Origin: Bacteroidota bacterium
Lineage (GTDB): Bacteria > Bacteroidota > Bacteroidia > Chitinophagales > S012-47
Direction of reading: 5' to 3'
DNA: 32,954 nucleotides
Assembly: GCA_024276745.1 (NCBI GenBank)
Contig: JAJRWN010000117.1
Span: 1 to 32,954, forward strand
The notes below the pieces were generated by a model. The model saw only the letters and a list, made by a program, of their open reading frames with translations. It was not told where the DNA came from and ran no database searches. Position numbers and translations under genes: made by a program. This document shows positions 1-28,429 of this stretch, in pieces; the first letter of the stretch is position 1, and each line of letters starts with the position of its first letter.

Positions 1-867
1 GACAGTTTGCTGGGCCGGCAAGCCCGGTCGTTCACGATAACAACCGATTATCCACTGAATCTGAAAACACAATTATTTCAGTATGGGGTGCGAATCAATT
101 ATGATTTGGTGCAGGACGAACGCTGTGCCGGTATTCCGCTTTATCGCGGCAACAGCAGTACACCCGTATTTTATCCCTGGTATTTTTATCCGATTATTGT
201 CCCCGATCCTACTCATCCGATTACAAAACACCTCGAAGCGATACGGATCAATTTTGCCAGTTCGATAGATACCATCAAAGTACCCGGATTGAAAAAAACC
301 ATTTTATTGCATAGCTCTTCAAGCAGCCGGCTGATGTTTAATCCGGTACGGCTAACCCTGAGTATGGCCGGTACAAAACCCGATCCTGTATTATTCAATA
401 AATCAGATATTCCGGTGGCTGTTTTGGTTGAAGGAAGTTTTCATTCAGTTTATAAAGGACGATTGCCTCAAGAATTTTTAAGAATCTATCGGGATAGTCT
501 GGGTTTAAAATATAAATCATCCAGCGATGAAAATAAAATGATTGTGATTGCCGATGGAGATATAGCTGCCAATGAAGTGGACAGCAAAGGCGTAAAATAT
601 CCATTGGGATATTATCGATATAATCCGAATTATATTTATGCCAACAAAGATTTTCTTCTGAATTGTATCGACTATCTGGCCGATAATTACGGATTGATAT
701 CAGCCAGAAACAAAGAATTCAGAACCCGTCCTTTGAATCGTGAAAAAGTAAAACAACAACGTTTTAAATGGCAAATGATCAATTTGCTCTTGCCATTATT
801 AGTTTTATTATTTTTTGGAGGAATACAGAATATTGTAAGAAGAAAAAAATATACCGGTTCTTTATGA
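1..867 (+). CDS. gldG: Gliding-motility ABC transporter auxiliary protein GldG, C-terminal part (5' end outside window)
   Basis: Frame is open from base 1 (DSLLGRQARSF...). GldG-like soluble region (VAVLVEGSFHSVYKGRLP, IVIADGDIAANEVD) and a C-terminal TM helix (INLLLPLLVLLFFGGIQNIVRRKKY). Lies just upstream of DUF4340 and dnaN, a common Bacteroidota gldFG-dnaN neighbourhood. Confidence 0.85.
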   Translation, partial: DSLLGRQARSFTITTDYPLNLKTQLFQYGVRINYDLVQDERCAGIPLYRGNSSTPVFYPWYFYPIIVPDPTHPITKHLEAIRINFASSIDTIKVPGLKKTILLHSSSSSRLMFNPVRLTLSMAGTKPDPVLFNKSDIPVAVLVEGSFHSVYKGRLPQEFLRIYRDSLGLKYKSSSDENKMIVIADGDIAANEVDSKGVKYPLGYYRYNPNYIYANKDFLLNCIDYLADNYGLISARNKEFRTRPLNREKVKQQRFKWQMINLLLPLLVLLFFGGIQNIVRRKKYTGSL

Positions 868-25774: not shown

Positions 25775-27103
25775 TCAAAACTTGATTCTAAATGCGGCTA
25801 CGCCTACCGAAAGGTTTGGTCTTTTGGCACCCAACCAGGTTGAGATATCGCGGGTTGCCAGAGCAAATTCATAACCTTTATGGTTTTTCCCTATAAGGAT
25901 TCTTATTCCAATTGGAACATTCATCCGGTAGTTTCCCCCCATGGTAATACCTGATGACAAGGTAAGAAAGTTAAATAAAGTATATTCTCCTCCTAAACCG
26001 AATGAAGGTTTTGCCATATTACCGGCAGCATGGTTTAAAGGAATGGTCAAATCCAAACCGGCACGAAAATCTTTAAAGGGTTCTATACTTAAACCCAGGC
26101 GCAATTTAGCCGGTAATGATTCTTTTATCAGTTCCGCTCCGGTCATGGTGATTAAATTGATGTTACTATTGAATAAGCTGGAATCAATACCGGTGAAATC
26201 TATGGTATCAATGCTAAAGTCATTGATTGCATATACATTCGATTGCCAGGTCATGTTTCCCAGTTGAGTTAGCGATATTCCTGCACTGAGCATTTTGGTT
26301 TTCAAAGTAAGACCAATATCCACTCCAAAGCCTTTACCGGCAGGTGTAAACCGGCCGGAAGTATCCAAGCTAGGATTTGGGACAGATGAAAAACCAATAT
26401 TAATTAAAGGTGTAAATGCTGAAACGGCTTTTAAAGTATTGTCTCTTGCACCTGCATCTATCATGGCATAACCAATAATATATTGAAGGCCGATGCCTCC
26501 ATAGAGGGTCAGATTATTATTGGAATATATGGTACGGCCATAGCCAAAATTTATAGTAGTAGTTGCCGAAAATGATATCATACTGCTATCGAATAGCTGG
26601 GATGCATTTATTGGATTATTTACAATACCTATGGTATCTCCGGAAGGAGTAACAAGCAGGGTATCTATAAAATCGGTATAATGAAATCCATTGAACAGTA
26701 AATTAGATAATCCGGAGTTGATGTATGAAGTAAATGAAATATTTTGTCTTACACTCAAGGCAAACCCTCCAATTTTTGGTATCATTAACGATAAACCAAT
26801 CGGCATTAAGTTAAAATCAAAAGAATTTCGTGCACCGGCAAATTTTTGAGCAATTTGAGTATTGGAATATTGCTGAATAAAAGTTTGTGGATTTTGACGA
26901 AGGGTTTTGAAATCCAGGTTACTCAAGGCAGAAGAATACATAGAGAGGTTAAGTTCGGTTAAGCCGATGGAAAATTTTGGTCCGTCTTTAAAACCCAGGT
27001 TAGCAGGGTTGATATTCAGTGATTGATAATCGCTTACTGTTGATGTGGCAATGCTGCCGCGTCCGGTTGCCGTTACAACGCTTCCTTCACTTTGAGCAAA
27101 CAC
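25775..27103 (-). CDS. DUF5723-like outer-membrane beta-barrel protein; ORF as given starts at a GTG at the end of an out-of-frame signal peptide
   Basis: FAQSEGSVVTATGRGSIATSTVSDYQSLNINPANLGF followed by barrel-like repeats and C-terminal VGVAAFRIKF. The intended start is probably ATG 27165, in a frame shifted by 1 nt at a T8 tract. Confidence 0.7.
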   Translation of the reverse strand: MFAQSEGSVVTATGRGSIATSTVSDYQSLNINPANLGFKDGPKFSIGLTELNLSMYSSALSNLDFKTLRQNPQTFIQQYSNTQIAQKFAGARNSFDFNLMPIGLSLMIPKIGGFALSVRQNISFTSYINSGLSNLLFNGFHYTDFIDTLLVTPSGDTIGIVNNPINASQLFDSSMISFSATTTINFGYGRTIYSNNNLTLYGGIGLQYIIGYAMIDAGARDNTLKAVSAFTPLINIGFSSVPNPSLDTSGRFTPAGKGFGVDIGLTLKTKMLSAGISLTQLGNMTWQSNVYAINDFSIDTIDFTGIDSSLFNSNINLITMTGAELIKESLPAKLRLGLSIEPFKDFRAGLDLTIPLNHAAGNMAKPSFGLGGEYTLFNFLTLSSGITMGGNYRMNVPIGIRILIGKNHKGYEFALATRDISTWLGAKRPNLSVGVAAFRIKF

Positions 27104-27259
27104 ATTTGGATAAGCAAAGGTTAAAAAAAACAGGAAGCAATTATTTTTGTAAGAAATTGTTTCATAAGCTTTCAGGATTAGATTATACAGTTAATTAACA
27201 GATTTGAATCAATAATCAATGGTTGCAAAACAAGAAGAAATATGAAATAGTATAAACAA

Positions 27260-28429
27260 TTAATAATCGATAACTTGTTGAGCAATTTGTTCCGGTATAG
27301 TTCGTGCTTCGTACTGTTGATCTCTTAATTGAGGAATAAATCCGGCTTCCCGGATAGCCGATTGAATACCTAAAGCAGTAAAACGATGAGGAGCACCGGC
27401 AGCCGACACCACATTTTCTTCAATCATGATAGAGCCAAAATCATTGGCTCCGGCATGCAGGCACATTTGGGCAATATCTTTACCAACGGTTAACCAGGAA
27501 GCCTGAATATTAGGAATATTAGGCAACATTATCCGGCTGACGGCAATCATACGGATATATTCATAAGCAGTCACCCGGTTTCTTACTCCTTTCAGATTGC
27601 GCAACATGGTTCCTTCATCTTGAAACGGCCATGGAATAAAAGCCAAAAATCCTTTAGCTTTTTCAGGTTTTTTATTTTGTACTTCTCTCAATTTCACAAG
27701 ATGTTCCATTCTTTCCATATTGCTTTCTATATGGCCAAACATCATGGTAGCCGATGTAGTCAGATTCAATTGATGGGCTATTTCCATTACCTGCAACCAT
27801 TCAACGGCACTACATTTGCCGTTTGAAATCAATCTTCTTACCCGGTAATCAAGAATTTCGGCACCAGCACCGGGTAATGAATCCAAACCTGCTTCTATTA
27901 GTTTTCTTAATATGTATTCCGGTGTTTTCTTTTCCAATTGACTGATATGCATAATTTCTGGCGGACCCAGTGCATGCAGTTTCATTTGAGGAAATTCTTG
28001 CTTTATTTGTTTAAATATACCGGTATAATAATCAAGCCCCAATTCAGGATTATGTCCGCCTTGCAATAGCAATTGTTCGCCTCCGTAATGTATGGTTTCT
28101 TTGATTTTTTCCCGGTATGTAGCCATGTCGGTTACATAAGATTCGGTATGCCCCGGAACGCGATAGAAATTACAAAATTTGCAATTGGCAACACATACAT
28201 TGGTTGTATTCATATTCCGGTCAATAATCCAGGTAACGATAGGCTCCGGTTTCTGAATCATTCTGAGCTGATGAGCGCATTGCATTAAGTCGCTTGTATT
28301 AGCCTTTTCGAAAAGAAACAAACCTTCCCGGGCTGATAGTTGTTCAAAATGAAGTGCTTTATTAAAAAGTGTTTCAATATCCATATTCATTATTTCCTGT
28401 TCTAAGGATTTGTAGTTTTGATGCCTCAA
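27260..28429 (-). CDS. mqnC: Cyclic dehypoxanthinyl futalosine synthase (radical SAM, menaquinone biosynthesis)
   Basis: Radical SAM CVANCKFCNFYR, GGEQLLLQGGHNPELGLDYY, HALGPPEI, SLPGAGAEIL. Likely start MNMDIETLF (28390). Confidence 0.92.
   Translation of the reverse strand: MRHQNYKSLEQEIMNMDIETLFNKALHFEQLSAREGLFLFEKANTSDLMQCAHQLRMIQKPEPIVTWIIDRNMNTTNVCVANCKFCNFYRVPGHTESYVTDMATYREKIKETIHYGGEQLLLQGGHNPELGLDYYTGIFKQIKQEFPQMKLHALGPPEIMHISQLEKKTPEYILRKLIEAGLDSLPGAGAEILDYRVRRLISNGKCSAVEWLQVMEIAHQLNLTTSATMMFGHIESNMERMEHLVKLREVQNKKPEKAKGFLAFIPWPFQDEGTMLRNLKGVRNRVTAYEYIRMIAVSRIMLPNIPNIQASWLTVGKDIAQMCLHAGANDFGSIMIEENVVSAAGAPHRFTALGIQSAIREAGFIPQLRDQQYEARTIPEQIAQQVIDY

What the first reader, a model, noticed from the sequence alone, without database searches (positions are those of the whole stretch)
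27100..27165. Signal peptide split from a DUF5723-like outer-membrane protein by one missing base in a T8 tract
On the minus strand, ATG at 27165 reads MKQFLTKIIASCFF and then hits TAA directly after TGTTTTTTTT. Adding one T (T8 to T9) gives MKQFLTKIIASCFFLTFAYPNVFA^QSEGSVV..., a textbook Sec signal peptide joined to the 25775-27103 ORF: ATG to GTG is 62 nt, so 63 restores frame as 21 codons. The tract is 27123-27130 on the plus strand (A8). Options are a sequencing or assembly homopolymer error, a slipped-strand phase-variation switch for a surface protein, or transcriptional slippage restoring frame.
Basis: partly seen in the sequence, partly recalled or inferred. Interest (0 to 1): 0.65.

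Follow-up and report, generated by a model that had tools for sequence, protein, structure and literature searches.

The report
Export signal broken by missing T
In the assembled genome of an uncultured Bacteroidota bacterium, an ordinary outer-membrane protein gene has lost one T in a run of Ts inside its export signal and so looks switched off; this is probably a chance slip rather than an evolved switch, although the same genome carries what look like real switches of this kind built from runs of C in at least eight other secreted-protein genes.

Summary
ATG 27165(-) reads MKQFLTKIIASCFF, then TAA at the end of T8 (27123-27130). The next frame carries the rest of a Sec signal peptide (LTFAYPNVFA^Q) and a 442-codon ORF with no in-frame ATG before codon 55. 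DUF5723 is supported through relatives: 14 of 14 aligned homologues hit PF18990. The model is a FadL-like barrel.

All 80 relatives from named genomes, and the others read in full, keep the signal peptide joined in frame. The T run is not conserved, and T8 near ATGAAA is no commoner in this genome than in a reversed-pattern control. A survey of about 1,400 coding A/T runs in 28% of the genome found no other broken gene, and run lengths match those of relatives, so wholesale homopolymer miscalling is unlikely. A single consensus error cannot be excluded.

Best reading: an ordinary barrel gene with an accidental one-base slip in its signal peptide. A dedicated T-tract switch is possible but unsupported; recoding is weaker.

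The striking result lies outside the window. Eight signal-peptide genes in this genome carry C8-C12 tracts just after the start codon, five with a near-identical leader, in mixed in-frame and out-of-frame states. Similar loci recur across the order, mostly on type IX secretion cargo.

The parts
27163..27165 (-). ATG start codon of the signal-peptide reading frame
27121..27165 (-). Short reading frame MKQFLTKIIASCFF followed by TAA (n-region and half of the h-region of a Sec signal peptide)
27123..27130 (-). T8 run (A8 on the + strand); one T short of joining the frames; also holds the -1 slippery heptamer T TTT TTT before TAA
27092..27122 (-). Remainder of the signal peptide in the other frame, ending ...AYPNVFA before Q (predicted signal peptidase I site VFA^QSEG; approximate boundary)
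   Evidence: homologues end AQ/GQ at the same place
25775..27103 (-). 442-codon ORF, DUF5723-family FadL-like outer-membrane beta-barrel; first listed start is GTG, first in-frame ATG at 26941
27260..28429 (-). Upstream gene mqnC (cyclic dehypoxanthinyl futalosine synthase), intact; ends about 95 nt before the ATG; context only

Best explanation
This is an ordinary gene for an exported DUF5723 outer-membrane barrel. Its signal peptide is Phe-rich and so contains a run of T. In the assembled copy the run has contracted by one base (8 instead of the 9 needed), so translation from the normal ATG stops after 14 codons and the barrel is not made with an export signal. Shown: the broken frame, and the intact signal peptide in every relative. 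Inferred: that the base is missing in the DNA of at least part of the sampled population, that it arose by ordinary polymerase slippage and could revert the same way, and that there is no selected switch here, since the tract is neither conserved nor enriched.
For: Frame break exactly in the T run. All 80 relatives from named genomes and the whole-genome relatives read in full have a continuous signal peptide, most ending at AQ/GQ, with no tract at the same place. The 442 codons are free of stops and the barrel model is good (pLDDT 85.5), so any break is recent. About 1,400 coding A/T runs of 6 or more in 645 kb gave no other clear broken gene, with 89% of simulated deletions detected. The A/T run-length profile equals that of relatives. 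ATGAAA...T8 occurs 15 times against 13 for the reversed control.
Against: No reads or second strain, so the base could simply be missing from the consensus. Coding runs of 9 or more are few (7 in the sample), so the error rate for that length is poorly bounded. The same genome appears to tolerate slippage tracts at this position in other genes, which raises the prior for a switch.
Confidence: 0.5

Rival explanations
1. Consensus or assembly error: the population has A9 and the gene is intact and always exported.
For: The assembly is in 164 contigs at 90% completeness with no named source; the correction restores a perfect family signal peptide; only 7 coding runs of 9 or more were called in the sample, so long runs are a small test set.
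Against: No other homopolymer frameshift in 645 kb; 71 coding runs of 8 are intact; the run-length profile is the same as in relatives; a T9 signal-peptide run elsewhere is called in frame (L277).
Confidence: 0.25
2. Evolved phase-variation switch: slippage between T8 (off) and T9 (on) randomly turns export of this barrel on and off.
For: Position in the signal peptide: the tract begins about 35 nt after the ATG, much like the poly-C tracts of other genes in this genome that begin 26-32 nt after it; surface proteins are typical targets of phase variation (PMC3711429).
Against: Tract not conserved in about 100 relatives; T8 not enriched near starts; a single short A/T tract; it does not share the leader of the poly-C genes.
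Confidence: 0.13
3. Recoding: T8 DNA is read as if T9 by transcriptional slippage on the T run, or by -1 ribosomal frameshifting on U UUU UUU before UAA, so some full-length protein is made.
For: The slippery heptamer is exact and the shifted peptide is the correct one.
Against: No stable structure downstream (z = +0.39); no Rfam match; no conservation of the site in relatives, which need no recoding.
Confidence: 0.07
4. The ORF starts at a rare codon (CTG or ATT) in its own frame and uses ...NNCFLFFLTFAYPNVFA as the signal peptide, so nothing is broken.
For: The frame is open 60 nt upstream of the tract and its translation is hydrophobic there.
Against: No ATG, GTG or TTG in that stretch; most relatives read start at ATG with a typical signal peptide; chance of an ATGAAA in the right place by accident is about 1%.
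Confidence: 0.05

Closest known systems
DUF5723 (PF18990) outer-membrane proteins of Bacteroidota
   Same: Homologous over the full mature length (about 25-40% identity to relatives that hit PF18990); same predicted beta-barrel
   Different: Signal peptide is out of frame only in this copy; the window protein itself falls below Pfam thresholds
FadL/TodX family outer-membrane channels
   Same: Best fold matches, Foldseek E 9e-9
   Different: TM-score only 0.43-0.48 and 10-13% identity; fold resemblance, not shown membership
Neisseria pilC and opa phase-variable genes (poly-C/poly-G and CTTCT tracts within the reading frame; PMC5953494)
   Same: One-unit change in a repeat within a surface-protein gene turns it on or off
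   Different: There the tracts are long (G9-20, CTTCT 7-21) and recur across strains; here a single T8, not conserved. The poly-C genes elsewhere in this genome are a much closer match
Poly-C signal-peptide genes of the same genome (contigs C1, C14, C88, C113, C130, C153, C158, C163)
   Same: Homopolymer in the first 10-15 codons, before or in the hydrophobic core; on/off by frame
   Different: C8-C12 rather than T; five share a near-identical leader; the proteins with a recognised domain are type IX secretion cargo, proteases and a DUF7948 protein, not barrels

Membership tests
DUF5723 (PF18990) | Match to the Pfam model | tested here: inconclusive
   Window protein: no hit at E up to 10; all 14 of its aligned homologues hit, best 6.8e-22
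DUF5723 (PF18990) | Outer-membrane barrel with N-terminal Sec signal peptide | tested here: inconclusive
   Barrel predicted and all relatives have the signal peptide; in this copy it is out of frame
Slipped-strand phase-variable (contingency) locus | Simple repeat whose unit change shifts the reading frame | tested here: met
   T8 splits the frames exactly
Slipped-strand phase-variable (contingency) locus | Tract longer or commoner at gene starts than composition predicts | tested here: not met
   ATGAAA...T8: 15 against 13 in the reversed control; T8 runs are not in excess of expectation in the genome
Slipped-strand phase-variable (contingency) locus | Tract kept in orthologues | tested here: not met
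   No relative has the tract at this place; no very close relative was available
Slipped-strand phase-variable (contingency) locus | Length polymorphism within a clonal population | not testable with these tools
   No reads held
Programmed -1 ribosomal frameshift | Slippery heptamer X XXY YYZ in the zero frame | tested here: met
   T TTT TTT then TAA
Programmed -1 ribosomal frameshift | Stimulatory structure downstream | tested here: not met
   Fold no better than shuffles, z = +0.39
Programmed -1 ribosomal frameshift | Conserved frameshift site | tested here: not met
   Relatives encode the signal peptide in frame
FadL family | Sequence or close structural homology | tested here: inconclusive
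   Foldseek E 9e-9 but TM 0.43-0.48; no sequence match in PDB

The most novel reading that the evidence does not exclude
The T8 gene belongs to a genome-wide set of signal-peptide slippage switches: bacteria of this order place homopolymers (mostly C9-C15, here T8/T9) in the first codons of exported proteins, so that replication slippage decides cell by cell which surface and type IX cargo proteins can enter the Sec pathway. The poly-C part is well supported on its own (my estimate about 0.85 that those loci are real switches); the probability below is for the T8 gene being part of it.
Probability: 0.12. Interest if true: 0.6.

Novelty: new member of a known kind. Interest (0 to 1): 0.38.

Why it matters
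On its own the T8 break is one missing base in one gene, and matters mainly as a warning that an annotation would lose the signal peptide. Following it up exposed a repeated design in the same genome and order: poly-C tracts inside signal peptides of large secreted proteins, with paralogous leaders, different tract lengths and mixed in-frame and out-of-frame states. I found no report of slippage-driven phase variation of type IX secretion cargo in the searchable literature (limited to open PMC papers). If real, it would show stochastic switching of surface proteins in uncultured Bacteroidota, directly testable by counting tract lengths in existing reads.

Tried and rejected
Single-protein scan of genome contigs found no relative; the alignment scan did. 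Search of viral contigs for the site with a variable tract: nothing. Pfam on the window protein alone: nothing. PDB sequence profile: only a chance hit. RNA structure downstream: none. Sigma-70 promoter scan: none, but not suited to Bacteroidota. Apparent frameshift candidates elsewhere (L084, L080, L018, window 768-867 and others) were rejected: each has its own in-frame start or is a normal adjacent or overlapping gene pair. Systematic under-calling of runs above 8, suggested by the drop from 111 runs of eight to 13 of nine, was rejected because relatives show the same drop.

Full report
Observation. On the minus strand the ATG at 27165 reads MKQFLTKIIASCFF and stops at TAA, whose T is the last base of a T8 run at 27123-27130. 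The adjacent frame is open for 471 codons and contains ORF 25775-27103. In that frame there is no ATG, GTG or TTG upstream of the GTG at 27103, and the first ATG is at 26941, codon 55 of the ORF, inside the first strand of the predicted barrel. One more T joins the frames to MKQFLTKIIASCFFLTFAYPNVFA^QSEGSVV. An ATGAAA in a suitable place in one given wrong phase has a chance of about 1%.

What the gene is. The window protein alone has no Pfam or NCBIfam match, but its relatives do: all 14 other members of the alignment hit DUF5723, PF18990, best E 6.8e-22. AlphaFold2 on a 44-sequence alignment gives a beta-barrel, mean pLDDT 85.5, pTM 0.86, nearest in the PDB to the TodX/FadL channels, E 9e-9 but TM-score 0.43-0.48. 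The upstream gene is mqnC; downstream lie a SusC/SusD pair and ATP synthase genes. The genome is a 2.3 Mb, 164-contig, 90%-complete assembly. A same-order genome's contig (G043:C211, 8,176 bases) has the length of a record titled Chitinophagales bacterium (JAIBBA010000136.1), so the order is probably Chitinophagales (inference).

Relatives. Whole-genome searches gave 25 relatives in the order, some of them partial matches, and the alignment scan gave 80 loci from named genomes (a few are the same loci). In 79 of these 80 a script found an in-frame signal peptide; the eightieth, L095, has one by eye (MKKRLLLALFTGNSCIAFAQTEM). The whole-genome relatives read in full agree. Most end in AQ or a similar cleavage site, just where the window protein would. 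None is split. T runs of 6 or more occur here and there but not at a fixed place. The nearest relative is only about 40% identical and the family holds four genomes, so a tract shared only by sister strains cannot be excluded.

Is it an error? In 645 kb of this genome (28%) there are about 1,400 A/T runs of 6 or more inside coding ORFs: 974 of six, 349 of seven, 71 of eight, 7 longer. A frame-change detector that recovers 268 of 300 simulated one-base deletions flagged 30 places; on inspection these were pairs of neighbouring genes with a start codon near the junction. A separate scan for broken signal peptides found this gene as the only clear A/T case. The run-length profile is the same as in relatives of similar GC. 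So the assembly is not riddled with homopolymer errors. The test for runs of nine is small, and one site can still be wrong.

Is it a T-tract switch? ATGAAA followed within 36 bases by T8 occurs 15 times in the genome, against 13 for the reversed pattern. A/T runs of nine or more are rarer than composition predicts (16 seen, about 80-115 expected). Other signal peptides carry T8 or T9 in frame (L075, L277). The T run is what Phe codons produce, not an evident selected feature. The run does form a perfect -1 slippery heptamer before a stop, but there is no supporting structure and no conservation.

What the follow-up showed. G/C runs behave in the opposite way. C or G runs of nine or more are in large excess (4 seen in the sample, about 0.13-0.2 expected), and ATGAAA...C9 has 12 matches (nested lengths of one tract counted apart) against none for the control. 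Eight genes carry the tract 26-32 nt after the ATG, ahead of or in the hydrophobic core: C153 (C12, in frame, 1,198 aa), C158 (C9, in frame, 1,220 aa), C163 (C9, in frame, 947 aa), C14 (C10, in frame, 846 aa), C88 (C8, in frame, 158 aa), C1 (C10, out of frame, 769+ aa downstream), C113 (C9, out of frame, contig ends) and C130 (C9, out of frame, contig ends; a restart ATG follows the tract). Five of them (C1, C113, C153, C158, C163) share the leader TTTAACCCTTCAAAGCAAATAATCATGAAAAG with 0-2 mismatches, and that leader was found nowhere else in the genome at up to 3 mismatches. C14 and C130 share a second leader. Products include T9SS type A cargo, a subtilase, an M43-like protease and a DUF7948/SBBP protein.

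The same layout recurs in other genera of the order: three loci with one shared start in G133 (C11-C13, one in frame, two not), four in G200 (C9-C13, one in frame, three not), and single loci in G014, G190 and G222. Seven of eight of the downstream proteins tested match the T9SS type A sorting domain, five above the curated cut-off and two just below. Over 399 genomes the pattern is found in 64; by my count of that table the reversed control is found in 22. Neisseria pilC and opa are the known precedent for repeat tracts within the reading frame of surface genes (PMC5953494). Searches of open literature found nothing on such tracts in Bacteroidota type IX cargo.

Verdict. The T8 break is real in the assembled sequence and the protein assignment is right. 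The best explanation is an ordinary one-base slip in a Phe-rich signal peptide (0.5), then a consensus error (0.25), an evolved switch (0.13), recoding (0.07) and a rare start codon (0.05). The poly-C loci found on the way are the better case for phase variation; their tract lengths also rest on an assembly without reads.

Noticed in passing
G000 contigs C1:2312-2321(-) = L019, C153:6511-6522(-) = L213, C158:4462-4470(+) = L085, C163:4190-4198(-) = L214, C113:24146-24154(+) = L209: Five secreted-protein genes share a near-identical leader (TTTAACCCTTCAAAGCAAATAATCATGAAAAG) followed by C9-C12 in the signal peptide; three in frame, two out of frame. Looks like a multi-locus slipped-strand phase-variation family.
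   Followed up: partly
G000 C14:8842-8851(+) = L203 and C130:151-159(-) = L032: A second leader (TTTAACCCAAAATCAAAAT..ATGAAACGTTTTTGTATGGGG) with C10 (in frame) and C9 (out of frame) before DUF7948/SBBP type IX cargo; an ATG directly follows the tract.
   Followed up: partly
L246-L248 (G133), L252-L255 (G200), L262 (G190), L263 (G222), L264 (G014): Other genera of the same order have ATGAAA + C9-C15 in signal peptides of large proteins, mostly with T9SS type A tails, with shared starts between paralogues and mixed frame states.
   Followed up: partly
L249 (G272), L251 (G286): Small lipoprotein-like genes starting ATGAAAAAGTCAATTTTTG + C9 or C12 in repeated copies, all complete ones in frame.
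   Followed up: no
G000 C5:11524-11532 = L049, C83:23409-23419 = L205, C95:12180-12188 = L207: C/G runs of 9-11 well inside genes, one within a 1,115-codon open frame with DUF7948, PKD and T9SS type B domains.
   Followed up: no
G000 C141 near 1077 = L212: Copies of a 37-base repeat (CTTCGAGAACCTAATCCACCAAAACAAGGATTGAAAC) that looks like a CRISPR repeat.
   Followed up: no
G000 sample of 645 kb: A/T runs of 9 or more are at least five-fold rarer than composition predicts while C/G runs of 9 or more are far commoner.
   Followed up: partly
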